From assembly GCF_000313135.1 (NCBI RefSeq), contig NW_004457288.1, positions 14,407 through 27,929 on the forward strand: DNA of 13,523 nucleotides, read 5' to 3'. How positions within the stretch are numbered: the first letter of the stretch is position 1; every line of letters begins with the position of its first letter. The translations under genes were made by a program, and so were the position numbers. The notes under the pieces were generated by a model, which did no database searches, had not been told where the DNA came from, and worked only from the letters and a program-made list of their open reading frames with translations. The stretch comes from Acanthamoeba castellanii str. Neff (lineage: Eukaryota; Discosea; Longamoebia; Acanthamoebidae). Below are positions 1 to 13,154 of the stretch, piece by piece.

Positions 1-547
1 ACGATTTTGACACATTCGCCAAGCCTCGACGAGAAGCTTGTCTCCCGCATCGACGATGTTCTGGGTCCGTACCTAAGAATTCTGTTTCTCTGTTTTTCAT
101 TCTTTCTGTTGGTCCCGCACTCACGCACATGACACGCACGCACGCACAGGTATCGACATTCCTCGGTTGATGGCAATGATCTCGCCGCCGAAGAAGGAGG
201 AGCCAGCGCCGCCACTTCAGCGACAGCAGTCCAATCCGTTCGGCGGCGCCGGCGGCGACGACAACCCGTTCGAGGACGAGCCCGAGGACGAGGACTACGT
301 GATCCGCGAGCGGGAGAAGGCGGCCTACGAGCGCCAGTTCCTCATGCTCAACCCGCAGGCTGGCAAGCTCAGCGGCGCGCAGGTCAAGACGGCGCTGGTC
401 GAGACGGGCGTGGCCACGGGCGTGCTGCGCAAGGTGTGGACCCTGTCCGACATCGACAAGGACGGCAAGCTCGACCTCGACGAGTTCGCCATCGCCCTGC
501 GGTACCGTCCGGCCCTTCTCCCATCTCTTTCGTGTGCGCGCTGTGCG

Positions 548-612
<65 letters not shown>

Positions 613-786
613 CGGTGGTGCGTGTGCGCACGACACTCACGCGTGGCTGTGGCTGTGGCCGTGTGTGCGCTGCACAGGCTGTGCGAGATTGCGAAGAAGT
701 CGCCCGAGAATCCGATTCCGTTCGAGATGCTTCCGGCCTCCCTGGTGCCCCCCTCCAAGATGAGCTTCTTCACCAACCCGCAGTAG
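1..786 (+). CDS. EHD-family membrane-remodelling protein, C-terminal part (partial at left edge), 3 exons
   Basis: EHD proteins are dynamin-like ATPases that tubulate endosomal membranes during endocytic recycling. Only the C-terminal part is in the window. Proposed exons are <1-64, 150-501 and 678-786, joined by GT-AG introns 65-149 and 502-677; both joins keep frame and restore family sequence (DDVLG/IDIPRLM and FAIALR/LCEIAKK). After the helical segment comes an acidic linker with two NPF tripeptides, then an EH domain with the conserved KVWTLSD and a canonical EF-hand loop (DIDKDGKLDLDE), ending LVPPSK as in EHD proteins. Stop is TAG at 784-786. Oddity: the family motif DFxxF is read in frame 3 at positions 3-17, whereas SLDEKL and all that follows is in frame 1, so one base appears extra near 18. 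It converges on the 944-1567 ORF. The family call is strong; the first 20 bases are uncertain. Confidence 0.85.
550..610. repeat. (GT)n microsatellite, about 30 units, inside EHD intron 2
   Basis: An uninterrupted alternating GT tract lies within the intron proposed at 502-677. It creates artificial Cys-Val and His-Thr reading frames on both strands that are not proteins. Its length is likely to vary between strains. Confidence 0.95.
617..683 (+). repeat. Left copy of a 67-bp segment from the EHD intron 2/exon 3 boundary
   Basis: This stretch covers the 3' end of EHD intron 2, the CACAG acceptor and the first bases of exon 3. Its reverse complement occurs at 9151-9217 with about one mismatch. 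This copy is the parent, because it sits in a working intron context. Confidence 0.85.
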
Positions 787-943
787 TCGTGGTGGTGGGT
801 CAGGTGGTCGGACTGGTATGGGCGGAGCACGTTTTGGGGTTGTTGATGATATAAAATTGATCGACACGTTGCCCCTTCTACGTAACAAACAAGTGGTGTG
901 GGTGTGTAAAATGTGTTTGTGTTTTGATCCATGGCCTGCGGGC
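787..943. other. Intergenic region between convergent genes
   Basis: This holds the 3' ends of the EHD gene (plus) and the 207-aa ORF (minus). An AT-richer patch at about 844-860 (GATATAAAATTG) may contribute to 3'-end formation; no perfect AATAAA is seen on the plus strand. Part of it, about 917-943, is also copied at 9111-9145, next to a run of C and a run of A. Confidence 0.5.
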
Positions 944-1567
944 TTACAGGCTGAGGGCGAGGGCGTCGACCAGCTCCGGAGCGAGTTCGGGGCACGCCTT
1001 GACGAGGCTGGCCAAGCCAGCCGGGCGGGTGTGCAGCGGAGGGAGCTCCGGCTTGTCGGGTCCGAGCAGGCCCGGTTCTTTGGCGGCCAAGTAGGAGCGG
1101 AACCGGAGAACATTCACGGGTCTGAGACACGACCTCAGCTGTTCTCCTTTGGCACTCGAGGAACGCATCCCGGAGGGATGGAACAACAAACCCGCCTCGG
1201 TGAGCGCGGTGTCGTAGGCCACCCGTGTCCAGGCATTCAGCCGTTCCTGCAGCGTCGCTGATAGCATTAGCCCACGCGTGGTGAACGACGCAGAGCCGGG
1301 GTTGGCGCTCCGGAATGCACTCATACCTGGAGCCGCATCAAGTTTGTGGTGGTCGCTTCGTCCAGAGGCTGCCTCTTGCAATCGAGCAGCCTTGAGATTC
1401 CGTGGTAGAGCCTGCATGACATGTGTGCCAATCAGTCGTGACACCAAACGGCCTTTTTCCGCACCTGATCTGCGCTGTAAGCTGACCACTGCATACTTGG
1501 CAAAGTCGCCCAAGTCGAACAGCTCAGGCTGCAGCATCTCCTCTGCGCGCTTGGGCTGTAAAGCCAT
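944..1567 (-). CDS. Unrecognised 207-aa protein, one exon; C-terminus duplicated in the window
   Basis: The frame is open from ATG at 1567 to TAA at 944, intronless and GC-rich at third positions. The product is Ala/Leu/Arg/Pro-rich and mostly soluble-looking, with no membrane segment or signal peptide. I recognise no catalytic motif. It starts MALQPKRAEE and ends in a helical LVKACPELAPELVDALALSL-type tail. The last 68 or so residues recur at 8904-9110 with one in-frame codon missing and mostly conservative or silent changes, which argues that the frame is or was protein-coding. The flank upstream of its start is shared with the other copy (segment B), and the retroelement sits further upstream. 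It could instead be a gene fragment of a multicopy family; function unknown. Confidence 0.6.
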   Translation of the reverse strand: MALQPKRAEEMLQPELFDLGDFAKYAVVSLQRRSGAEKGRLVSRLIGTHVMQALPRNLKAARLQEAASGRSDHHKLDAAPGMSAFRSANPGSASFTTRGLMLSATLQERLNAWTRVAYDTALTEAGLLFHPSGMRSSSAKGEQLRSCLRPVNVLRFRSYLAAKEPGLLGPDKPELPPLHTRPAGLASLVKACPELAPELVDALALSL

Positions 1568-1852
1568 GTCGTTGGTAGTGTAGTGTTTAGTGTTGTCCAG
1601 GTGACCACACGGCCCAACGGTAAAGATGTTGGCGTATGTACCACAGCACCGATGGCGTTTGGGGGCGCCAACTTCCAGTCCTGCCCATGTGACGCTGATA
1701 GCATCCAGCTTTAATAGGCGGCCTTAAGAGGGTGGGCGGCAACAATTCAAGGATGTCAATCTGGAGTTCAGGAGCACAGGAAAGCCATTGACATACAGCA
1801 GTGCACGCGATGGGGAAAAAGAGGCAAAGGGGTGGGAATGGTTGTTCTTGAT
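1568..1852. other. Upstream region of the 207-aa ORF, with segment B (1654-1686)
   Basis: No convincing gene is seen here. Segment B, whose reverse complement carries GGACTGGAAGTTGGCG, matches 8871-8903 with about two mismatches over 33 bp. The rest, up to the retroelement edge, has no match elsewhere in the window. It presumably holds the promoter of the minus-strand ORF. Confidence 0.5.
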
Positions 1853-1966
1853 TCAACAGTCATATACAACATCTCTATACATTACTAGCTTCCCTCAACA
1901 CAGCATTCACACTCTTGTTTGGCCTCACATCAAGAGATTCTCTGTGCATCTATATAGAGCCACTCT
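1853..1966 (+). repeat. Left terminal repeat (LTR core or TIR)
   Basis: It starts TCAACAGTCATATAC and ends GAGCCACTCT. It is followed by CTATATATGATACTCATCAC (1967-1986), the likely remainder of an LTR ending in CA. It is the reverse complement of 4255-4368 except for two adjacent differences near 1946. Confidence 0.9.
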
Positions 1967-1988
1967 CTATATATGATACTCATCACAT

Positions 1989-2001
1989 TGGCAACAATGG
2001 C
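1989..2001 (+). promoter_or_regulatory. Possible primer-binding site
   Basis: TGGCAACAATGGC begins four bases after the putative LTR end (CA at 1984-1985). A primer-binding site that starts TGG and lies a few bases after the 5' LTR is typical of LTR retroelements. The tRNA was not identified, so this rests on position and the first three bases only. Confidence 0.3.
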
Positions 2002-2007
2002 TACTTG

Positions 2008-2277
2008 ATGTCTAAGAAGGTGAAGGGCAAGCTGCCAGTTGAGGCAGAAGCAAAGGTTAGCAAGGAGGAGGAAGAGGAGGAGGAGGAGGTTGAAGGTGGA
2101 GAGGATGAAGAGGTGGGAGAGGTTACCAAGAAGGGGACAACAAAGGTGAGTTCAGCTGGTGGACAGTCAAGTCAGTTCAATGGGGCAATGATGCCCTGCA
2201 CTGATTTGGGGCCATCAGCCTGGACTATGATTGGCAAGTTGTGCAGGTGGTGGGCATGGATGTGCCCATGTCTATGA
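2008..2277 (+). CDS. Acidic 89-aa ORF at the start of the element, possible Gag remnant
   Basis: The first ATG after the putative primer-binding site opens an 89-residue frame. It has a basic start (MSKKVKGK), a run of eight Glu and more acidic residues, then Ser/Gly. No zinc knuckle or capsid fold is recognisable. Its position and charge pattern suggest what remains of a Gag N-terminus. Downstream, the +1 frame around 2210-2330 shows a hydrophobic stretch that could be decayed protease-region sequence, too weak to call. Confidence 0.35.
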   Translation: MSKKVKGKLPVEAEAKVSKEEEEEEEEVEGGEDEEVGEVTKKGTTKVSSAGGQSSQFNGAMMPCTDLGPSAWTMIGKLCRWWAWMCPCL

Positions 2278-2895
2278 TGGTGGATGAGGGCAGGGTCTCC
2301 ATGCAAGTAGTGGCTGGTGTGACTATTCTGCTATGTGTGGCAGTCTTTGTCTGCTGTGTGGTTGTGGGGGATGTCAGAGACACATGAGTGTTCCTGGTGG
2401 AGGAGGAGGCTGACAAGGAGCTGACAAAGTCAGGAGCAGTGGTGGCACACAGTCTCTGCTGGGTATTGTGGAGCAAGGGTCACATGACAGCCTATGTGCA
2501 TGTCATGAACCCAGAACTTGTGGTCATTTGAAATGAGAGGTCCAGTCATTTTGAAAAGTGATTTTGTTTGTGAGTTTAAGCTCATAAAAATGGTTTTGAT
2601 AACACAAAAATGGTTTTATAACATGACAAAATTGGATGCATCTTGAGATATGGCAGATCAAAATTCCATCATAATGAGAGATGTGATACTGTGACTGGGC
2701 CAGCAGTCAAAGTCAAATTAGTTTGGTGTGGTTGGCATAATGTGAGGATTACTGGGGTAGCCAGTGTTCTTTATCTTATTGGCATGGTGGCAATTGTCAT
2801 TGAGCACACACCTAGAGGAGGAAGCTTTTTTTCATGAATTGGGAAGTGAACAAAGGAGTTTATTTTAAAAGTTGGAAAGATTGGAAAGACAGAGT
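2278..2895. other. Decayed internal region of the retroelement
   Basis: Short plus-strand frames around 2390-2520, such as VEEEADKEL and TAYVHVMNPELV, resemble the linker between protease and reverse transcriptase in gypsy Pol, but stops interrupt them. The stretch 2540-2640 is AT-rich with a near-repeated AAAATGGTTTT. AATAAA is present on the minus strand at 2859-2864. No intact gene is seen. Confidence 0.35.
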
Positions 2896-3205
2896 TTAGT
2901 ATTCACTCCTATCCACATCAGAACCAGAGTGGAAAGGGGAAAGTGACCCAAGGTCAGGCAATTGGTCAATGTCAGAGTTGTGGCTTCTGTCCCTGCTCCA
3001 GCTCCTGCTGGCTCCTGCTCTTGTGGCACTTGTGTCACAATCCACAGCTGTGCTTGTGGCAGTCATTGTGGGCACTGCTGTGTCTGTGGGCGTGGGTGTC
3101 AGTATCCTCATGATCTCAATGCTTTCTCTTGTGCAATGGTTCCAAGTGAGGGGTTGTGGAGAGCTGAGACTGCTGTTGATTTTGAGAGTAAGTGATATAT
3201 TTCAT
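2896..3205 (-). CDS. Unrecognised minus-strand ORF inside the element, with downstream AATAAA
   Basis: On the minus strand a frame open from about 3205 ends TAA at 2896. It encodes a Thr/Pro-rich stretch, then a Ser/Arg/Asp-rich tail (SRSWSRDRSHNSD ... SDVDRSEY). An AATAAA follows about 30 bp beyond the stop, and a CAACAG splice-acceptor-like site lies near its upstream end. These together resemble the 3' exon of a small gene, but the sequence is low complexity and CpG-poor like the rest of the element. No family is recognised. Confidence 0.3.
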
Positions 3206-3429
3206 AACATACACATAAACAATGAAAAAAGGGCATGGGTGAATGAAAACCTGTGTAGGGGTGCTAGGAGCTGATGCCATGGAAGAAGGGTCAAGAAGAA
3301 GTGGAGGTACTGGATGAGATGTGGTGGTGGGTATGACCATGTGAGGTTGTGCAGCTGGGGGATGGATGCACTATGACCCCAACTGTGGGCTGGTGGGATG
3401 GAGGCCCCAGGACAAGATGGCTGGGAGTG

Positions 3430-3728
3430 GTGTGGTGATGGAGAGCAGCATGTTGGTCAAGGGTGGCAAGGCGTCTGGGAACAGTGTGGTGATGGAGAGT
3501 GGCATGTTGGTCAAGGGCAGCCAGGTGATGGAGAGTGGCGCAGTGGTCAAGGGCGGCTGGGCAGTGGTGAGCAGTGTGGCAACAGAGAGTGGCATATCAG
3601 TCAAGAGCGGCCAGGTGGTGGAGGTGGTGGAGAGTGGTGCAGTGGTCAAGGGTGGCCAGGTGGTGGTGAGTGGCACAGTGACAGAGAGTGGCATGTTGGT
3701 CAAGGGTGGCAAGGAGATGGAGAGCAAC
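3430..3728 (+). repeat. Minisatellite, about six units of roughly 36-54 bp, in frame
   Basis: Variant copies of a unit containing ATGGAGAGTGGCATGTTGG follow each other. The frame through them encodes variants of ESGMLVKGGK, including ESGAVVKGGQ and ESGISVKSGQ. Unit length differs by multiples of three, so the frame stays open into the integrase fragment downstream. Confidence 0.8.
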
Positions 3729-3788
3729 ATGGTGGTGGAGGAAGATGAAGCAGAGGAGGGCGAGGAGGCAGAGAAGGAGGAGGAGAGC

Positions 3789-4178
3789 AATGAGATCTTG
3801 GTGGCCAAGGTGTTCATAGAGGAGGTTGTGTGTTGGCATGGGGCGCCTGAGGCACTGCTCTTGGACCAAGGGCAACAGTTCTTGAGCAAGGTGCTCAAGG
3901 AGGTCAATGAGTTATTGGGTGAAAAAGGTGAACACAGCACCTTACCTCCCCCAGACAGACAGCCTGGTCAAACACTTCAACAGCACACTCAGCCTTGGCA
4001 ACACAAAGACCTTGGGCCACTCAAAGGTCTGTTGGCAAAGGTCACCAACAAGAAGCAGGACAACTGGGACCTCTACATGCCCTATGTGCTGTTTGCATAC
4101 TGCACAAGCATGCATGAGGCCACACAGGACTCCCCATTCTACCTCCTCCATGGTTGGGAGGCCAACCTACCTGGTTGA
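3789..4178 (+). pseudogene. Ty3/gypsy-type integrase core remnant, frame-broken and catalytically defective
   Basis: Three blocks match the retroviral-type integrase core in order: VFIEEVVCWHGAPEALLLDQG (frame 3), VNTAPYLPQTDSLVKHFN (frame 1), then WDLYMPYVLFAYCTSMHEAT ending DSPFYLLHGWEANLP (frame 3 again). Two frame changes, near 3920 and after about 3990, are needed to follow it, so it cannot make a complete protein. The second catalytic Asp (LLLDQG) remains, but the catalytic Glu expected in the (G)LVERFN motif is Lys (SLVKHFN). The first catalytic Asp and the zinc-binding domain are not visible. The fragment is continuous upstream with the minisatellite frame. Confidence 0.8.
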
Positions 4179-4254
4179 TGTGTTGGCTGGAGTCCTGATG
4201 GATGCCCTGGGAACCTCAACTCACCAGTATCAATTGGAACTTGTGGTCCAATAT

Positions 4255-4368
4255 AGAGTGGCTCTATATAGATGTGCAGAGAATCTCTTGATGTGAGGCC
4301 AAACAAGAGTGTGAATGCTGTGTTGAGGGAAGCTAGTAATGTATAGAGATGTTGTATATGACTGTTGA
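4255..4368 (-). repeat. Right terminal repeat (inverted copy of the left one)
   Basis: This is the reverse complement of 1853-1966. It is itself flanked by the inverted decamers AGAGTGGCTC (4255-4264) and GAGCCACTCT (4367-4376). The outer flank 4367-4394 is a direct copy of the sequence at 1957-1986. This arrangement is what an in-place inversion of the LTR core between the two decamers would leave. Confidence 0.9.
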
Positions 4369-4390
4369 GCCACTCTATATTTGATACTCA

Positions 4391-4879
4391 TCACACCCAC
4401 ACGCTATAACACACGTGAGGAGCACATGTTGCAGCGACCGTGCAGAGAGGGGGGGAAACCTCGTCAGTTCCCTGGACAGCGCCTTCCAGTGCTGCGTTTT
4501 GCTTCTTGCCTGCTCGAAGAGCACTTCGAGGTCCTACCAAAATACCACCACCACAGATGGAGTGGTGGGCACCCACAATTTCATCATCAATTAGATGGAG
4601 GTAGTAGGAATTACCCGAGTGGGTGGTGTGAAGCTCAGCATGGGTGATAGTGGAATGGAAGACAGCGGCCACCCCTGACAGTGGATCCTCCAGATACAGA
4701 TGCACAAACAGCTCTTACCACTTTAGGTAAGGAATCAACTGGGACCGCTTCAGGAGCACACTTGTCAGTTCCAGCCGAAGGGTATCTCTTTGGTCGGTGG
4801 TCATGCTCCTTGGGCGGAACCACAGCATCTCAGCTGTCACCTCTAAGCCGACAACCAGGATCACGTGAGCCAGCGCCAT
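4391..4879 (-). pseudogene. Possible gene remnant, minus strand, one in-frame stop
   Basis: From ATG at 4879 a frame reads MALAHVILVV ... LLKRSQLIPYLKW and meets TAA at 4715-4717. The same frame then continues open for another 108 codons (LFVHLYLEDPLSG ... LIDDEIVGAHHS) through segment A to 4391. Upstream, a perfect GTAAGT donor (reverse complement of 4891-4896) follows a short frame ending GPDGRKPGFFALTR, so this could be exon debris of a longer gene. A 45-nt GT-AG intron removing the stop is conceivable (GTAAGAG ... CTGTCAG), but it changes the downstream frame. No family recognised. Confidence 0.3.
4430..4552 (-). repeat. Segment A, left copy of a dispersed conserved segment
   Basis: The reverse complement matches 8684-8813 closely, including GCACTGGAAGGCGCTGTCC and CAGGGAACTGAC. 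Two frames stay open in both copies: one reads LRFASCLLEEHFEVLPKYHH here against LRFAPCTIEELFEDLPKYHH in the right copy, the other reads ALEGAVQGTD in both. It may be a 5' exon or a promoter/UTR segment shared by the duplicated genes. I do not recognise a domain. Confidence 0.7.
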
Positions 4880-5080
4880 AGAGTAATGTCACTTACCTTG
4901 TCAGTGCAAAGAATCCAGGCTTCCTTCCATCAGGACCTGGTCCATGGTGGTACCTGCTTCTCCTTCTTCAACCAAGGCCAGCAGCCTGTAAAATTCTTTA
5001 ACAAACTGGTGCGCAGCGTGGTGTAGAGCATAGCAACATCACACCAATCAATGAAGGAACAGAAAAGGAGCTTCATTACA
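4880..5080. other. Gene debris upstream of 4879 and 3' flank of the truncated repeat-protein copy
   Basis: Apart from the splice-donor-like site and a short minus-strand frame (HQFVKEFYRLLALVEEGEAG, about 4940-5000), nothing is recognisable. It shows no match to the region after the stop of the full-length paralogue at 8005. Confidence 0.4.
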
Positions 5081-5575
5081 CTAGAGGATGGGGGCGGTGG
5101 TGGAGGTGGTGGCGGCCCTGGCCGTGGCGGGGTCGACGCCCTCGGAGATGAGCTTGCCCTCCTCCTTCTTGAGCTCGTTGCCCGTGATCGAGCCCTGCAG
5201 CTGCTTCACGGCGCCCTTCAGCCTCTGGCCCATCGTGGGCTTATGCGCCGCCGTCGTGCCCAGCGCGCCCTCCCGCGCCGCCAGCGGCACGTCCCTCATC
5301 ACCGGAGTGGTCCCGCGGTGGCCCATCAGCCGCTCCTCCGTTGCCAGGGCGCGGCCGACGACTGGAATTTGAGGCAGCGGCTTCGCGTAGTGGAGCCCGC
5401 CAGCGGGGGCCGCGATGGTGACGGTGGGTTCGATGATGGGCGGGAGCATGACGGTGTGCTCCTGGTTGATCACCCGCTGCTCGGTCGTCACCTCCGTCTT
5501 GATCACCGGCTGGATGTGGTGCACCCGCTCGTGGATCACCGGCTGGATGTGGTGCTCGTGGTTGATCTGCACCGG
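5081..5575 (-). pseudogene. 5'-truncated paralogue of the 546-aa repeat/CsbD-like protein
   Basis: Reading from about 5575 to TAG at 5081, the frame matches the last ~190 residues of the 6364-8004 protein. It has one copy of the HHIQPVIHERVHHIQPVIKTE block, then a linker, then an almost identical tail (GQRLKGAVKQLQGSITGNEL, EGKLISEGVDPATAR, ending TTSTTAPIL). The linker is shorter and divergent, whereas the ends are nearly the same. The upstream three and a half repeats and the MSHHERK start are absent. Homology begins right after GTGCAG, which could be a splice acceptor, so a short upstream exon within 5576-5720 is possible; otherwise it is a truncated copy. The frame upstream is open to about 5713 but has only a TTG start. 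Confidence 0.7.
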
Positions 5576-6363
5576 GGCTTGGTTGGTGTTGGGTCGACAT
5601 CTGGTCACCGAGAGCCAACCGGAGTGAGTCAGTATCCCCCGACATTTGAGGCTTGTTTTAGCAAAACGCGTTGGTCGGCCAAGGTGCCATTCGGAGCAGG
5701 CGTTTGCAACCAATCACCTCCCTCCGCCTACCAGGGGTTGACTATTTGTCGACTGTCGTTCGCTCGAAACAAGGCTCAGAAAGGCAATGATCTTTGTGTC
5801 GACGGATTCCGGAAATTCAAATGGCACGTCTTCGATTGGCTGGTTGGAATCGATCTGTTTTTCTACACTTTTTTGCCCTTTTGCCAGGCAGCGTCGGAGC
5901 CTTTACTCCCCCATCTCAAGTTGTTAATTCGCTGAACCGACCCCGAGGCCAAAACCTTTTTATTGTCCGGACAAGGTGACGTCACACGCCACTCCTGTCC
6001 ACCACCCACGACCGGTGCGAGGTGGGATCGCGCTTTCCACCGCATTTCACCCCCAACCGGGCCGAATCTGCAGCGATGGGCGCCCGACCCTCTGGCCCAC
6101 GTGCCTAAAGGCCACCCACCCTTTCCCTTCCATTCTCATACTCAAACCCAGAACCCTCAACCTCATCCCCACTCCCAACACCAACCACACGCGCCACATC
6201 ACCCAGGTTCGGCTCTCTCGCCCACCTCCAACTTGGTTCCTGTGGATTGTCGTCGTTGTTGAGCGCACACGACAGGCATTAACCGCACACGCCCATGACA
6301 CACGCACACGCACTTACAAGAATGTGTTTGGAATGTGCCGTTGTGTTCTGCACGCAGTAGAAA
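5576..6363. promoter_or_regulatory. Spacer at the centre of the inverted duplication, probable divergent promoter region
   Basis: No convincing gene is seen on either strand. It contains a perfect TGACGTCA (5977-5984) and TTCCGGAA (5807-5814), the latter fitting two head-to-head heat-shock half sites. A CACGCAG immediately before the 6364 start and an AG|GTTCGG near 6205 could define a 5'-UTR intron, which is speculative. The 3' portion is rich in CACAC/ACGCAC and precedes the ATG at 6364. The long minus-strand frames here are shadows. Confidence 0.4.
5977..5984. promoter_or_regulatory. TGACGTCA palindrome (CRE/bZIP-type site)
   Basis: A perfect 8-bp palindrome lies about 380 bp upstream of the 6364 start and about 400 bp upstream of the truncated minus-strand copy. 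It is the consensus for CREB/ATF-type bZIP factors. Whether amoebozoan factors use it here is unknown. Confidence 0.3.
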
Positions 6364-8004
6364 ATGTCGCATCACGAGAGAAAGGCGGCCAAGCACGAGG
6401 AGAAGGCGGCCAAGCACGAGGAGCACCACCTCTTCGGCCGGCGACACTCCACCGACAAGCACGCCGCCACCTCCGTGCCCGTCACCACCGGCACCGGCCT
6501 CGGCACCACCACCACCACAGCCGAGGCCCTGGCCCGCGAGGGCGCGCCCGTTGTCCACACCGCCGCCGTGCCCGTCGTGCCGATGCAGGGCCTGTCGCTG
6601 GCCGACCGCGTGGTGCACGAGCCCGAGCAGGTCATCCGCCACGCGCCCCTCTTCGAGAAGGAGATCGTCAACGAGCGCACGCTCGAGGTCAAGCGCGAGC
6701 ACCACATCCAGCCCATCGTGCACGAGACCGAGCACCGCATCCAGCCCATCATCAAGACCCAGGCCACCACCGAGCAGCCGTTCATCGTGCAGGACCGCAA
6801 CGTCATGCTCGCGCCCATGGTCGAGCGCGCCGCGCTGCCCGCCGGCCTCGAGGCCGTTGAGCGCGTGGCGGCGGAGGGCATCATCCACGCGCCGCGGGTG
6901 GAGACGCTGGTGGTCAACGAGCGGCCGGTCGAGGTGCGGCGCGAGCACCACGTGCAGCCCATCATCCACGAGCGCGAGCACCGCATCCAGCCCATCATCA
7001 AGACCCAGGCCACCACCGAGCGGCCCATCATCGAACAGGACCGCAACGTCATGCACGCGCCCATCGTCGAGCGCGCCGCGCTGCCCGCTGGGCTCGAGGC
7101 GGTGGAGCGCGTGGCGGCGGAGGGCATCATCCACGCGCCGCGGGTGGACAGGCAGGTGGTGGTCGAGCACCCGGTCGAGGTGCGGCACGAGCGGCACATC
7201 CAGCCGGTGATCCACGAGCGCGAGCACCACATCCAGCCCATCATCAAGACCGAGGTGACGGCCGAGCAGACCCACATCAAGACCGACCGCAGCGTAATGC
7301 TCGAGCCCGTGGTCGAACGCGCCGCACTGCCGCTGGGCCTGGAGGCCGTCGAGCGATCCGGCCCCGAGGGCGTGCTCCACAGGGCCAAGCTCGAGAAGGA
7401 GGTCTTGGTCGAGCACCCGGTCGAGGTGCGGCACGAGCACCACATTCAGCCGGTGATCCACGAGCGGGTGCACCACATCCAGCCGGTGATCAGGACGGAG
7501 GTGACGACCGAGCAGCGGGTGATCAACCAGGAGCACACCGTCATGCTCCCGCCAATCATCGAACCCACCGTCATGACCAGGGCCGCGCCTGCCGTTCCCC
7601 TGGCAACCGCCGCGCCCGTGGTGGCCACCACGACACTGCCGCACATGGCCGGCGTGCTCAACCAGTCGAAGCCGCTGCCGCAAATCCCGGTTGTAGGCCG
7701 CGCGCACGAGCCCGTCGCCGTTCCCACGACGGCCACGACGGCCGTGCTGCCCGCGGAGCAGGGACTGGGGCCGACGGGGGTGGCGCGGGACGTGCCGCTG
7801 GCGGCGCGGGAGGGCGCGCTGGGCACGACGGCGGCGGCGCACAAGCCGACGGTGGGCCAGAGGCTGAAGGGCTCCATGAAGCAGCTGCAGGGCTCGATCA
7901 CGGGCAACGAGCTCAAGAAGGAGGAGGGCAAGCTCATCTCCGAGGGCGTCGACCCCGCCACGGCCAGGGCCGCCACCACCTCCACCACCGCCCCCATCCT
8001 CTAA
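6364..8004 (+). CDS. 546-aa His/Val/Glu-rich tandem-repeat protein with C-terminal CsbD-like segment
   Basis: One uninterrupted exon runs from ATG at 6364 to TAA at 8002-8004. Residues 1-25 hold a duplicated, charged KAAKHEEK motif; about 35-80 is Thr/Ala/Val-rich. From about residue 84 to 410 lie four copies of an 82-residue repeat, the last partial; each contains a doubled HxIQPxIHE/HxIQPIIKT block and ends with an [18 protein letters not shown] block. A Thr/Ala/Pro linker follows. Residues about 497-529 (GQRLKGSMKQLQGSITGNEL ... EGKLISEG) resemble the CsbD-like family of small stress-induced proteins. There is no signal peptide, membrane segment or catalytic motif. The high charge, His content and CsbD-like tail suggest a soluble, stress-related protectant or scaffold; that is inference. 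It has a truncated inverted paralogue at 5081-5575. Confidence 0.85.
   Translation: MSHHERKAAKHEEKAAKHEEHHLFGRRHSTDKHAATSVPVTTGTGLGTTTTTAEALAREGAPVVHTAAVPVVPMQGLSLADRVVHEPEQVIRHAPLFEKEIVNERTLEVKREHHIQPIVHETEHRIQPIIKTQATTEQPFIVQDRNVMLAPMVERAALPAGLEAVERVAAEGIIHAPRVETLVVNERPVEVRREHHVQPIIHEREHRIQPIIKTQATTERPIIEQDRNVMHAPIVERAALPAGLEAVERVAAEGIIHAPRVDRQVVVEHPVEVRHERHIQPVIHEREHHIQPIIKTEVTAEQTHIKTDRSVMLEPVVERAALPLGLEAVERSGPEGVLHRAKLEKEVLVEHPVEVRHEHHIQPVIHERVHHIQPVIRTEVTTEQRVINQEHTVMLPPIIEPTVMTRAAPAVPLATAAPVVATTTLPHMAGVLNQSKPLPQIPVVGRAHEPVAVPTTATTAVLPAEQGLGPTGVARDVPLAAREGALGTTAAAHKPTVGQRLKGSMKQLQGSITGNELKKEEGKLISEGVDPATARAATTSTTAPIL
6613..7590 (+). repeat. Tandem 246-bp coding repeat (82 aa), four units
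   Basis: Corresponding GAG codons of the (K/R)(R/H)E(H/R)HxQP block fall at 6697, 6943, 7189 and 7435, exactly 246 bp apart each time. Units 2 and 3 are the most alike. Within each unit the HxIQPxI block is doubled about ten residues apart. Confidence 0.95.
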
Positions 8005-8143
8005 TCATACTTGCGTGTAGGGCCAGCAAAAACACGTAATAACACTTACGTCATTGCACGATTATGGTGGTGGGACGATTATTTATTCTTATTATTTTTA
8101 TTTACATTTGTATTTATTTGTTGTTTGTTGACGGGAAAGGCCT
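8005..8143. terminator. AT-rich convergent 3' region with minus-strand AATAAA signals
   Basis: It lies between the stop of the repeat protein (plus) and the stop of the membrane protein (minus). On the minus strand it carries several overlapping AATAAA/AATAAT motifs (about 8080-8120), well placed for polyadenylation of the membrane-protein transcript. The plus strand has only a weak AATAAC. Confidence 0.55.
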
Positions 8144-8813
8144 TCACTTCCTCCAGGAGGAGAACCAGGAGAAGGAGGGGGAGACAGACACGTTCTCGGC
8201 GGGGGCGTGCTGCTGGTTCTGGCGCAGTGCCACGTAGAGGCCCAAAAGCGTCCCCCAACGAGGAGGATGCCAGCGACGAGGGTGAAGTTGATGTTGGTGT
8301 TGTTGCTGCCGCTGACGGTACCGCTGCCGTTTATCACACCACTCGGGTTGTAAGAACCGTGATGAACGATGTGGCTGCCGCCCGTCGCAACAGAGCTGTT
8401 GGTGTTGGGTGGGCAAGGTAGTTGTTTGGCGCAAGTTGTATGGTGCCGAATAAAAAAACCACTTTTTTCAACGTGCCACGCAACAGGCCTGTTTCCGATA
8501 AATTCGACATTCAGATGCGCCGTGGCCAATTCCACCCACTCCCTGCGGTGGTGGTGACAACGGAGCTGTTGCCGTAGGCGACGTTGCTTTGTCCACCGCA
8601 GCTAAGTCCCACCACCATAACTGCGGCATCTTCGTCGTCGTTGTTGTGGTACCTTGGCGTGGTGGTGGCGTATGGTGGTGGTGGTGGTGGTATTTGGGTA
8701 GGTCCTCGAAGAGCTCTTCGATCGTGCAGGGAGCAAAACGGAGCACTGGAAGGCGCTGTCCAGGGAACTGACCCTCGAGGTTTCCCCCTCTCTTTGCGCG
8801 GTCGCAGCAACAC
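8144..8813 (-). CDS. Small single-pass membrane protein, 2 exons, frame broken at a G5 run
   Basis: Exon 8395-8144 and upstream exon ending at 8536 are joined by a GT-AG intron (8535-8396, 140 nt) that keeps frame (TTTAGSG/SVATGGS). The likely ATG is at 8618, giving about 111 residues; the frame is open further up to 8813 through segment A. The N-terminal two thirds are Gly/Ser/Asn/Thr-rich with N-glycosylation-type sites (NSS, NGS, NNT). A hydrophobic helix follows, starting NFTLVAGILLVG, then a short tail (ALRQNQQH ... SWFSSWRK). The helix is interrupted: the frame before the G run (8252-8256) leads to another reading, and one more G would continue GTLLGLYVALRQ to the TGA at 8144. No signal peptide is evident. 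Ectodomain outside and short cytosolic tail is the natural topology. Function unknown. Confidence 0.55.
8684..8813 (+). repeat. Segment A, right copy, with a 16-bp perfect palindrome
   Basis: This is the counterpart of 4430-4552 in opposite orientation. It contains TCGAAGAGCTCTTCGA (8706-8721), a perfect palindrome; the left copy has one mismatch to symmetry (GAGCAC). It lies between the divergently oriented membrane-protein gene and the truncated 207-aa-ORF copy. Confidence 0.75.
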
Positions 8814-8870
8814 GACGGGATCTACTCACACCCACCCACATGTGTGGGTTGTTATTGGGGGCGTGGTGGT

Positions 8871-9110
8871 GGGCAGGACTGGAAGTTGGCGCCCCCGGAC
8901 GCCGGCAAAGGAGAACAGCTGAGGTCGTGTCTCAGACTCGCGAATGTTCTCCAGCTCCGCTCCTTGGCCGCGCAAGAACCGAGCCTGCTCGGACCCGACA
9001 AGCCGGAGCTCCCTCCGCTGCACACCCGCCCGGCTGGCCTGGCCAGCCTCGTCAAGGCGTGCCCCGAACTAGCTCCGGAGCTGGTCGACGCCCTCGCCCT
9101 CAGCCTGTAA
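8871..9110 (+). pseudogene. Truncated copy of the 207-aa ORF (C-terminal 68 residues) fused to its own upstream flank
   Basis: Segment B (8871-8903) is joined directly to the sequence for GKGEQLRSCLR, so about 500 bp including the start and first two thirds of the ORF are missing relative to the minus-strand original. The remaining frame runs to TAA at 9108-9110 with the same LALSL ending, one codon deleted, and otherwise mostly conservative changes. There is no in-frame ATG in the remaining part; only a GTG at 8844 precedes it. I regard it as a deletion pseudogene. Confidence 0.75.
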
Positions 9111-9150
9111 CCCCCCCCCCTGCAGGCCGTTGATCAAACAGAAAAAAAAA

Positions 9151-9217
9151 CACAGTCTGTGCAGCGCACACACGGCCACAGCCACAGCCACGCGTGAGTG
9201 TCGTGCGCACACGCACA
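9151..9217 (-). repeat. Inverted copy of the EHD intron 2/exon 3 boundary
   Basis: This is the reverse complement of 617-683 with about one mismatch. It follows a C10 run (9111-9120) and an A9 run (9142-9150), and lies where the left arm would predict EHD sequence after a roughly 230-bp deletion. Confidence 0.85.
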
Positions 9218-9266
9218 TCGTCAAGCGCGCGGCGCTGCCCGTCGGGCTCGAGCCGTGGAGCGCGGG
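9214..9266 (+). pseudogene. Fragment of the 82-aa repeat coding unit
   Basis: ATCGTCAAGCGCGCGGCGCT and what follows encode IVKRAALPVGLE, matching the [18 protein letters not shown] block of the 6364-8004 protein (for example 7061-7110). One base is missing after GLE, so the frame is lost. It abuts the EHD intron fragment without a gap. Confidence 0.7.
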
Positions 9267-9421
9267 GCCAAGCAGGATCGAGAAAAATGATGGGATAACG
9301 TTTTATAAACAAGTGTGCTGGCGAAGAAGAAGATCTGTACACAGGGAGTGGAGGGGAGATGAACGGTTGACAGGTAATGACAGATCGCGGCGTGCGGTGT
9401 GGGTGTGGTCACACACACACA
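9267..9421. other. Intergenic, 3' of ClpB
   Basis: No gene is seen here. The stretch includes a short CA run (9410-9421) and TTTATAAA near 9300. It may serve as 3' UTR of the minus-strand ClpB transcript. Confidence 0.4.
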
Positions 9422-9739: not shown

Positions 9740-10590
9740 TTTTTTTTTGAGTCGGCGGTGGCGGCCGTGTTAGGCCCCACCCGGAAGGTCAGCTTGCCGT
9801 TGGTGGCCGTGATGTGGACCATGCTGTCGTCCAGCAGCTCGCCCGCAATGATCATGCGCGACAACTGGTAACACACATACACACATACATAGATTCGCCA
9901 ATGTTAAAGATAGGCAACATGTTGCGAAGAATGTGAAGACTGAAGCGTACCTGAGTGACGATGTGCTTCTCGAGGTAGCGGCGCAGAGGCCGGGCGCCGT
10001 AGAGGGGATCGTAGGCTTGGGCGAGGATGAGGTCCAGCGCGGATTCGTCGATGTCGAGGTGGATGTCGCGGTCCTCGAGGCGCTTGCCGACGGCCAGGAC
10101 CTGCAGGCGGACGATGTTGTGGAGGTGCTTCTTGGAGAGCGGGTGGAAGATGACGATGTCGTCCATGCGGTTGAGGAACTCGGGCCGGAAGTGCATCTTG
10201 ACCACGTTCATGACCTGGTCGCGGGCCGACTCCTTGAGCGTGCCCTCGGAGTCGACGCTCTTCAGGAGGATGTCGGAGCCCAGGTTCGAGGTGAGGATGA
10301 TGACCACGTTCGAGAAGTCGACCACGCGGCCCTGGCCGTCGGTGAGGCGACCGTCGTCGAGCACCTGGAGCAGGATGTTGAGGACCTGCACATGGGCCTT
10401 CTCCACCTCGTCGAAGAGCACCACGGCGTAGGGGCGGCGACGGACAGCTTCGGTGAGCTGGCCACCTTCGTCGTGGCCCACGTAGCCGGGCGGGGCGCCG
10501 ATGAGCCGGGCCACGGAGTGCTGCTCCATGTACTCGGACATGTCGATGCGGACCATGTTCTTCTCGTCGTCGAAGAGCTCGTGGGCGAGG

Positions 10591-10622
<32 letters not shown>

Positions 10623-11529
10623 AGGGCCCAGGAAGAGGAACGAGCCGAGCGGCTGGTGCGGGCGCGACAGGCCGGCGCGCGAGCGCAGGATGGCCTCGGC
10701 GACGGCGTCGACGGCCTCCTCCTGGCCCACGACGCGCTCGTGGAGGTGCTCGGCGAGATGAAGCAGGCGCTGCTTCTCGGTCTGGTTGAGCTTGCTCACG
10801 GGGATGCCGGTCCAGCGCGAGATGACCTCGGCCACCTGCTCGGGGCCGACCACCTCGGAGAAGAGCTTGTTATCGGCCTTGCGTGAGGCGTCGGCCTGCT
10901 CCTTCTGGCGCTCGAGGGCGGCGATCCGCTTCTCGAGCTCGGGCACGGCGCCGTAGCGCAGATCGGCGGCGGTGGCGAGGTCCTTGCGTCGCTCGGCGGC
11001 GTCGGCCTTGAGCTTGAGGTCCTCGAGTCGCTTCTTGAGCGTGCGGATCTCGTCGAGCGCGCCCTTCTCCTGCTCGTAGCGCGCCTTGAGCGGGCTGATC
11101 TCCTCCTTGATGCGCGACAGCTCCTCCTTGATCTTCTCGATGCGCTGCTCGGTGGCCTTGTCCTTCGATTCCTTGTACTCCTTCTCCATGGCGGTGAGCT
11201 CGACCTCGAGCCTGAGACGGCGGCGCTCGAGCTGGTCGATCACCTCGGGCTGCGAGTCGAGCTGCACGCGGGTGTTGGCGCAGGCTTCGTCAATCAGATC
11301 GATGGCCTTGTCGGGCAGGAAGCGGTTGGTGATGTAGCGGGCGGCGAGCTGGGACGCCATGATCAAGGCCGAGTCCATGATGCGCACGCCGTGGTGGGCC
11401 TCGTACTTCTCCTTGAGCCCGCGCAGGATGCTCACGGTGTCCTCGACGCTGGGCTCGCCGACGTAGACCGGCTGGAAGCGCCGCTCGAACGCGGCGTCCT
11501 TCTCCACGTGCTTGCGGTACTCGGCCAGG

Positions 11530-11564
<35 letters not shown>

Positions 11565-12582
11565 GAGCATGGGCTTGAGCAGGTTGGCCGCGTCCATGGC
11601 GCCCTCGGCCTTGCCGGCGCCCAGCACGAGGTGGATCTCGTCGATGAAGAGGATGATCTTGCCCTCGGCCTCCTTGACCTCCTTGAGCACAGCCTTCAGT
11701 CGCTCCTCGAACTCGCCGCGGTACTTGGCGCCGGCCACGAGCGCGCCCATGTCGAGCGCGATGACGCGGCGGTCCTGGAGGTTGGTCGGCACGTCGCCGC
11801 GCACGATACGCTGTGCGAGGCCCTCCACGATGGCGGTCTTACCCACGCCGGGCTCGCCGATGAGCACCGGGTTGTTCTTCGTACGTCGGGACAGCACGCG
11901 AATGACTCGCCTGATCTCGTCGTCTCGACCTGTCGTGCAGCACAAGAAAAAACAGGAGATGTGAGAAACGAGATGTGCACAGATGTAAAGCAAGTCGGAG
12001 TGAAGATCTTCGTGAGTAGAGGGTAGGAAGAGGTACCGATGACTGGGTCGAGCTTGCCCTGCTCGGCGCTGGTGACGAGGTCGTGACCATACTTCATGAG
12101 GGCCTCGTAGGTCTCCTCGGCGTTCTTGCTGTCTACTCGTCGGCCGCCTCGACCTCGCGAACGGCCATCTCGAGCTTCTTCTTGTCCAGGCCGCACTCGT
12201 TCAGGGCGCCGGCAACGTCTGAGTCCGTGTGCAGAGCGAGCAGGATGTGATCGACGGCGAGATGCGAGTCGTTCTGCTTCTTCTGGATCTCGGTGGCCTC
12301 GCGCATCATGCGCACGAAGGCCTGGCCAGCACCGACCTCAGGCGGCGCTGGGCTCTGGGTGGCTTGTCGACTGAGGACCTTGCGCAGGGCGGCCTCGACC
12401 TTCTCGGGCGACGCACCAGCCTTGTTGGCGATGCTACGCGCAAGGCCATCCTCCTCGGCAAACAGCACTACGGCGAGATGTATGGGTGCCAGCTGGACGT
12501 GTGAGTGTTCCTCGGCCAGCTCCTTGGCCTTCGACACCGCCTCGGCCGTCTTCTCGGTCCAGTACTTGGGGTTGAGTGCCAT
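9673..12582 (-). CDS. Hsp101/ClpB-type AAA+ protein disaggregase, 4 exons
   Basis: This hexameric ATPase threads aggregated proteins through its pore, working with Hsp70. Proposed exons (minus): 12582-12154, 12151-12037, 11929-9951 and 9864-9673. Introns 12036-11930 and 9950-9865 are GT-AG and keep frame ([27 protein letters not shown]). Domains in order: Clp N-domain ([12 protein letters not shown]...), first AAA with Walker A GEPGVGKT, Walker [10 protein letters not shown] and pore KYRG, long coiled-coil middle domain typical of disaggregases, second AAA with [18 protein letters not shown], pore GYVG, sensor TSNLGS and GARPLRR. The length is about 905 aa, with no organelle targeting extension, so cytosolic/nuclear Hsp101 is likely. 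Oddities: a missing base near 12152 (REV to [10 protein letters not shown]) and an A10 run near the C-terminus. Confidence 0.93.
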
Positions 12583-13154
12583 TCTACAGAATGATTATGT
12601 GATTGTGTGATTTATGTGCAGAATCTCTTGAAATGAAGGGTTTCTTCCTGTGTCCTTCGAGCTGCAGTGCAGTCGTCTCGGGTACTTGCTGGTGTCTTGT
12701 TGTGGTGTGGTGAAATGGTGAGTCCAGGCTGCCTTCCACCTTCTTGTAGCGTGCGCCATTCTCATGGTGGTGTCTTCAGCTTCGCCCTCCGCCACTTTCA
12801 GCCCCACTCTCACCGCTCGTTGGCCTAAATTTCCTGCGCTCTTACCTGAATTCTCAATTTTGCCGACATTAGGAAGTGTAGCGGGTCGCCAACGACGCTG
12901 AAGAAGGGTACAAGGGGGTGGGCTTGAAGACATTCATTTTGTAGAGCTGGGGTGCTCGTGACAAAACGAGCGCACGGCTCTACACGATGTGATGGTGGTT
13001 GGCGGCGAGGCGGTCTTCCGCGACGACAGGTGGTGGGGCTCAGAGCGCGTGCAAAAAAAAGTGGTGTAAGTTATGTTCACCACGTCGAGTAGCCCACCTC
13101 CCTCATTGTCTCATCTCATTCGCCGTTTCCGTAGTCGTTGTTGATCGTTGTAGT
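12583..13154. promoter_or_regulatory. Region between ClpB start and the next gene; presumed ClpB promoter
   Basis: No convincing coding sequence lies here. It should contain the ClpB promoter and 5' UTR (minus strand) and the 3' UTR of the 13155 gene. Scattered GAA/TTC triplets occur near 12620-12660, but no clean three-unit heat-shock element at 5-bp spacing is visible. No TATA box stands out. Confidence 0.45.

What the first reader, a model, noticed from the sequence alone, without database searches (positions are those of the whole stretch)
617..9217. Interrupted inverted duplication covering most of the window
Five separate segments of the left arm recur, reversed and in the same order, in the right arm: repeat-protein tail, A, B, ORF C-terminus, EHD intron end. 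The two arms differ by deletions and by one retroelement insertion, which gives a relative time order: duplication-inversion first, or at least separate from, the insertion and losses. The centre is the 5.58-6.36 kb spacer that now looks like a divergent promoter region.
Basis: seen in the sequence. Interest (0 to 1): 0.75.

Follow-up and report, generated by a model that had tools for sequence, protein, structure and literature searches.

The report
Decayed inverted duplication in amoeba genome
A stretch of amoeba DNA holding the end of one gene and a neighbouring repeat-protein gene appears to have been copied in mirror image and then eroded differently on each side; this is a real but ordinary kind of genome rearrangement, and long reads are still needed to prove that the two halves sit side by side.

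Summary
The inverted homology is real. Seven segment pairs, reversed and in mirror order, link 618-5576 to 7416-9216, above chance (53-355 bits; 50 shuffles reach 39). The window is one gap-to-gap contig of an Acanthamoeba genome, very probably A. castellanii Neff: the left X tail matches annotated protein ACA1_139890. The left arm holds a decayed LTR-type insertion, 1688-4395, with TG..CA ends and CCCA on both sides; a metagenomic protein shows the empty site and the right arm lacks it, so 'duplication first, insertion later' is the likelier order. Divergence of six pairs is 1.5-10%, borderline heterogeneous (p=0.052); the seventh, a linker in gene X, is 38%. Protein comparisons show that X genes have a mosaic history. 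U and the left arm are 99.8% identical in the EHD gene and then split abruptly, as unresolved alleles or a recent copy would. The spacer is single-copy and lies upstream of the right X; a 'divergent promoter' was not shown. Linkage of the arms rests on one contig without reads. Known kind of rearrangement; modest interest.

The parts
1..786 (+). 3' part of an EHD-type gene (EH domain), cut by the N run at the window start; last intron holds a (GT)n run
   Evidence: Pfam EH PF12763, 3.6e-15 on 170-520; 1 of 646 bases differs from copy U over 101-532 and 618-832; the first 100 bases hold 4 substitutions and one indel against U, as at contig ends
618..1151 (+). left arm, distal segments: EHD intron end 618-683 and ORF C-terminus 923-1151
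   Evidence: reversed in 9151-9216 and 8906-9138
944..1567 (-). open reading frame of 207 codons in the left arm, function unknown; decayed in U and in the right arm
   Evidence: one short relative, P0017; no Pfam family at E<0.01, no NCBIfam family at E<0.1
1654..1687 (+). left arm patch next to the insertion site
   Evidence: reversed in 8870-8903, 2 of 34 differ
1684..1687 (.). target-site duplication CCCA, left copy
1688..4395 (.). decayed LTR-type retroelement insertion, left arm only; TG..CA ends, gypsy-like integrase remnants near 3790-4180 (seen by eye, recalled motif; no Pfam match), CpG almost absent from 2001 on
   Evidence: empty site in P0017; no insert beside the patch in U and the right arm; CpG observed/expected 0.00-0.23 in 2001-4500
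1688..1987 (.). putative 5' LTR; its 3' end recurs directly at 4373-4395
   Evidence: 23-base direct repeat 1965-1987/4373-4395; limits are my inference
2513..3329 (.). inner piece repeated elsewhere in the genome
   Evidence: at least 8 other places of 600 bases or more at 92-95% identity (40 of 77 candidates scored)
4396..4399 (.). target-site duplication CCCA, right copy
4427..4554 (+). left arm segment reversed in the right arm (called A here)
   Evidence: 8681-8812, 13 of 128 differ
5082..5576 (-). left copy of gene X: C-terminal part only, truncated at 5576; annotated as ACA1_139890
5577..6360 (.). spacer at the centre; upstream of the right X
   Evidence: only itself found in the genome
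6364..8004 (+). right copy of gene X, full length (546 codons), tandem 82-residue repeats, weakly CsbD-like C-terminus (below Pfam's cut-off)
8519..8594 (-). right arm segment shared with U; no match in the left arm
   Evidence: 84% to C223:11328-11396
8681..9138 (-). right arm: A, 1654 patch and ORF C-terminus, reversed
9151..9216 (-). right arm: EHD intron end, reversed; the last EHD exon is missing next to it
9207..9268 (+). fragment of an X repeat at the distal end of the right arm
   Evidence: 86% to 7053-7115; 91% over 47 bases to C9:1285328-1285374
9770..12594 (-). flanking ClpB/HSP104-type gene (limits approximate), outside the duplication
   Evidence: AAA_2 1.5e-69, Clp_N 6e-19; nearest relative in the genome on C114, pieces at 71-81%

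Best explanation
A segment running from the last intron of an EHD gene through an unknown ORF to the repeat-protein gene X was duplicated in inverted orientation. It left a head-to-head pair of X genes around a short spacer (L arm, minus strand; R arm, plus strand). Each arm then decayed on its own: R lost the last EHD exon and most of the ORF; L lost the 5' half of X and took in an LTR-type retroelement. X genes have exchanged sequence, probably by gene conversion, so their repeats and C-termini look younger than their linkers. The direct copy U across the N run is most likely the other allele of the L arm, placed in tandem by the assembler; a recent tandem copy is the alternative. Shown: homology, order, orientation, an insertion confined to L with an empty site elsewhere, mosaic X genes. 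Inferred: one founding event, that the insertion came later, exchange between these two arms, allelism of U. How the inversion arose (fold-back or template switching) is a guess.
For: Seven reversed pairs in mirror order. The right arm has its own sequence between the pairs and its own deletions, so it is no mechanical reverse copy of the left. U shows the left-arm order EHD-ORF-X(-) a second time. Insertion: CCCA on both sides, TG..CA ends, and the joined flanks read in frame like P0017. Neff annotation holds the U and L X tails as ACA1_139850 and ACA1_139890, both on a contig of 146,960 bases. Mosaic: in N-terminus plus repeats, sites that group R with P0002 against P0001 outnumber the reverse 30 to 2; in the linker it is 2 to 12 (Fisher p=1.9e-7). 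L, U and R are identical over the last 127 bases of X. A second head-to-head set of X relatives lies on C9.
Against: No reads were available. The window is one contig between two N runs, probably from an assembly of short and 454 reads. The linker pair differs by 38%. The C-terminal identity could be constraint. The mosaic test compares R with proteins of other sources, so it shows mosaic X genes and not exchange between these two arms. At the insertion site R has 57 bases of unlike sequence, and U lacks A altogether, so neither is a clean empty site; a deletion could have removed an insert from U. The X fragment at 9207-9268 is unexplained. The N run of 2,359 is also roughly the size needed for a tandem EHD copy.
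Confidence: 0.68

Rival explanations
1. Assembly joint: L and R are both real but come from different alleles or paralogous places, and the assembler joined them at or near 5577.
For: The window is bounded by N runs and its left part repeats the end of the preceding contig. The break of L at 5576 lies inside an X repeat, a place where a false join is easy. EHD is 99.8% identical between U and L and then diverges abruptly (1 of 646 against 37 of 1,027; p=2e-7). Divergent Neff alleles were not properly placed in a later Neff assembly (passages of PMC12210455). Neff was assembled from Velvet contigs cut into pseudo-reads, with 454 and Sanger reads (passages of PMC4053784).
Against: The right arm carries reversed remnants of EHD and the ORF at its far end; a joint at the centre would not make these. 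The spacer was found only once.
Confidence: 0.2
2. U and L are tandem paralogs, so the locus is a three-copy array (two direct, one inverted) and not an inverted pair seen in two alleles. This concerns U only and does not exclude the best explanation of L and R.
For: Both are annotated on a contig of the same length, 146,960 bases. Missing EHD 5' sequence (about 1.8 kb) plus missing X 5' sequence (0.56 kb by the ACA1_139850 model, about 1 kb by R) could roughly fill the 2,359 N.
Against: EHD 5' sequence was found once, apart from a short simple repeat (40 of 180 candidates scored). Near-identity in EHD beside strong divergence needs an extra conversion event. The N run leaves little room for an intergenic stretch.
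Confidence: 0.35
3. Independent events: X, the ORF piece, A and the EHD piece were copied separately into the right side.
For: Linker divergence of 38%; A at 10% against 1.5% for the EHD piece; X is a dispersed family, found on nine contigs.
Against: Mirror order of all seven pairs; six of seven compatible with one age at p=0.052.
Confidence: 0.07

Closest known systems
Palindromic gene blocks with conversion between arms (human Y, Adineta vaga, Folsomia candida; as told in passages of PMC5490193)
   Same: inverted duplication of a multi-gene block, with signs of sequence exchange between gene copies
   Different: much smaller (a few kb), heavily decayed, arms interrupted by deletions and a retroelement; conversion between these very arms not proven
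Divergent, unresolved alleles in Acanthamoeba Neff, called highly polyploid and aneuploid (passages of PMC12210455)
   Same: near-identical flank followed by structurally different versions, laid out as separate places in an assembly
   Different: explains U against L, not the inverted right arm; that paper treats viral regions
LTR retroelement insertion (Ty3/gypsy-like by eye)
   Same: TG..CA ends, short target duplication, integrase-like remnants
   Different: decayed; part of one LTR end inverted and the rest missing; no Pfam match to the remnant

Membership tests
Inverted segmental duplication (palindromic block) | two or more loci repeated in reversed order and orientation | tested here: met
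Inverted segmental duplication (palindromic block) | physical linkage of both arms on one molecule | not testable with these tools
   only one gap-free contig; no reads
Inverted segmental duplication (palindromic block) | similar divergence of all segments | tested here: inconclusive
   six of seven p=0.052; with the linker p=3e-25
Palindrome with arm-to-arm gene conversion | parts of one copy grouping with different relatives than other parts of it | tested here: met
   30:2 against 2:12 sites, p=1.9e-7; relatives are from other sources
Palindrome with arm-to-arm gene conversion | exchange shown between the two arms themselves | tested here: inconclusive
   127 identical bases in L, U and R at the X 3' end; constraint not excluded
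LTR retrotransposon | TG..CA ends and target-site duplication with an empty site | tested here: met
   the duplication is only 4 bases, and the clean empty site is known from a protein (P0017) alone
LTR retrotransposon | two direct LTRs | tested here: inconclusive
   23 bases direct at the ends; 118 bases inverted, the rest of the 3' LTR not seen
LTR retrotransposon (Ty3/gypsy) | reverse transcriptase or integrase family match | tested here: not met
   no Pfam or NCBIfam match for 3786-4178, the only part tested; resemblance by eye only
CsbD-like protein (gene X) | Pfam CsbD above its cut-off | tested here: not met
   17.1 and 19.1 bits against 40

The most novel reading that the evidence does not exclude
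In this polyploid amoeba, gene family X is repeatedly held in head-to-head inverted sets (C223 here and a second set on C9) whose arms keep exchanging sequence, a palindrome-based upkeep of gene copies like that proposed for parthenogenetic animals.
Probability: 0.15. Interest if true: 0.5.

Novelty: new member of a known kind. Interest (0 to 1): 0.3.

Why it matters
It gives a relative order of events (inverted copying, arm-specific loss, retroelement insertion, exchange between gene copies) in one compact locus of an amoeba described as polyploid and aneuploid. It also warns that gene counts in the older Neff annotation may include allelic duplicates such as ACA1_139850 and ACA1_139890.

Tried and rejected
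Chance matches: rejected by shuffles. Treating the 118-base inverted ends of the insert as part of the duplication: rejected, they belong to the element. CpG loss by decay after insertion: unlikely, because 19 of 20 aligned pieces of the repeated inner part elsewhere have CpG observed/expected of 0.16 or less (one 0.36). Finding the locus in other genomes: no relative in viral contigs or genome contigs; no relatives of this genome are held. Papers: ACA1_139850 is in no paper of the library. 'Acanthamoeba' with 'inverted duplication' gave one paper, on Dictyostelium by its listing. Six further searches gave listings; from these I opened PMC12210455, PMC12344493 and PMC5490193, passages only, the second without use for the argument. 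PMC4053784 was opened by its recalled DOI (passages). Function of X: no convincing solved structure (best E 0.07), no NCBIfam family. Structure prediction was not run.

Full report
What the window is. It lies at C223:14407-27929 of a 38.4 Mb genome in 250 contigs, exactly between two N runs of 2,359 and 3,203 bases (I held C223:1-47929 of 143,081). N may mean an assembly gap or a withheld stretch. Protein ACA1_139890 of Acanthamoeba castellanii Neff (181 residues) equals the left X tail over its last 172 residues. The upstream tail equals ACA1_139850 from INHEHH to the end. I infer that the genome is Neff or nearly so. The N-terminal part of ACA1_139850 was not found at high identity (best 76%) and the contig lengths differ (146,960 against 143,081), so this may be another version of the assembly.

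The observation. Self-comparison confirms the reversed pairs in mirror order (values in the observation check). Shuffled windows give at most 39.2 bits.

C223:9819-12047 is a direct copy (U) of the left arm: EHD end, ORF pieces, X tail on the minus strand. It lacks the insertion and A, and carries a 51-base micro-inversion relative to 1250-1300 (identical, reversed). U continues into X beyond the point where L breaks off at 5576. Over EHD 101-532 and 618-832 U and L differ at 1 of 646 aligned bases; over five segments beyond 833 at 37 of 1,027, with indels. Part of the 20 differences in 833-1103 may be alignment noise, since a local alignment shows fewer. The first 100 bases, with 4 differences, were left out as probable contig-end error. 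EHD 5' sequence occurs once apart from a short simple repeat. This fits two alleles, or a recent copy, better than two old tandem genes. For Neff, divergent alleles not properly placed in an assembly are described in PMC12210455, which also calls Acanthamoeba highly polyploid and aneuploid (passages).

Order of events. The insertion sits at 1688-4395 with CCCA on both sides and TG..CA ends. Joining the flanks restores a frame that reads ..ATCAPHVCYSVWAGLEVGAPKRH.., against ..ATCDPHVCCGVWAGLEVGAPKRH.. in metagenomic protein P0017. U and R show no insert beside the patch, but R has 57 bases of unlike sequence before A, and U lacks A, so only P0017 is a clean empty site. The insertion is thus most likely later than the inverted duplication; whether it is later than the parting of U and L is open. 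R lost the last EHD exon, with TGTG near the join, and about 500 bases of the ORF; U lost about 60 bases between two GGAAC (junctions read by eye).

Divergence per segment. EHD piece 1/66, ORF 12/226, patch 2/34, A 13/128, X C-tail 6/216, last repeat 10/158: p=0.052 for heterogeneity. With the X linker (41/109) p=3e-25. X history accounts for the linker: R resembles P0002 in N-terminus and repeats (390/401) but not in the linker (26/37), while L resembles P0002 in the linker (40/42). Site counts reverse between regions, 30:2 and 2:12 (C-tail 3:0, too few to tell). Rate differences alone do not reverse such a ranking; recombination among X genes does. L, U and R share 127 identical bases at the end of X; none of 10,000 shuffles gave so long an L-R run, though constraint could.

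Gene X. A family found on nine contigs. On C9 two copies on the minus strand face three on the plus strand about 10 kb away. Cross-arm matches there run from 71 to 90.2% identity, the within-arm pair is 75.5% in one arm and 77-89% in the other. The best cross-arm pair is only slightly closer than the best within-arm pair, so this second head-to-head set is suggestive at most. Function is unknown; a CsbD-like C-terminus is below Pfam's cut-off.

Verdict. A real, decayed inverted duplication, a known kind of rearrangement. Linkage at the centre is the open point. The 'divergent promoter' reading has no support here: the spacer was found once and the left X lacks its 5' half; promoter activity was not tested.

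Noticed in passing
window 1853-4395 and L023-L041: The insert and 19 of 20 aligned pieces of its repeated inner part elsewhere have almost no CpG (observed/expected 0.16 or less, one piece 0.36), against 0.93-1.15 in 12 one-kb windows upstream on the same contig; the family seems CpG-poor by descent and not by decay in place.
   Followed up: partly
window 4501-5000: CpG is also low here (observed/expected 0.33), beyond the right end of the insertion, mostly in a stretch matched only by the left arm itself; perhaps another inserted piece.
   Followed up: no
window 1853-1970 and 4251-4368: 118 bases of the element's end are inverted between its two ends, next to an 18-base inverted repeat (4247-4264/4367-4384), like a flipped LTR piece.
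   Followed up: partly
L056 and L057 (C9:687500-693500 and 699500-706500): A second head-to-head set of X relatives; cross-arm matches 71-90.2% identical.
   Followed up: partly
C223:10965-11015 against window 1250-1300: A 51-base micro-inversion between U and the left arm with no substitution.
   Followed up: no
window 9207-9268: An X-repeat fragment at the distal end of the right arm, closest to a paralog on C9.
   Followed up: no
window 1-100: Four substitutions and one inserted base against U in the first 100 bases of an otherwise near-identical gene: probably contig-end error.
   Followed up: no
window 5577-5650: The annotated model of ACA1_139890 seems to need a 19-base intron to reach a start codon, so its 5' end is doubtful (splice read by eye).
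   Followed up: no
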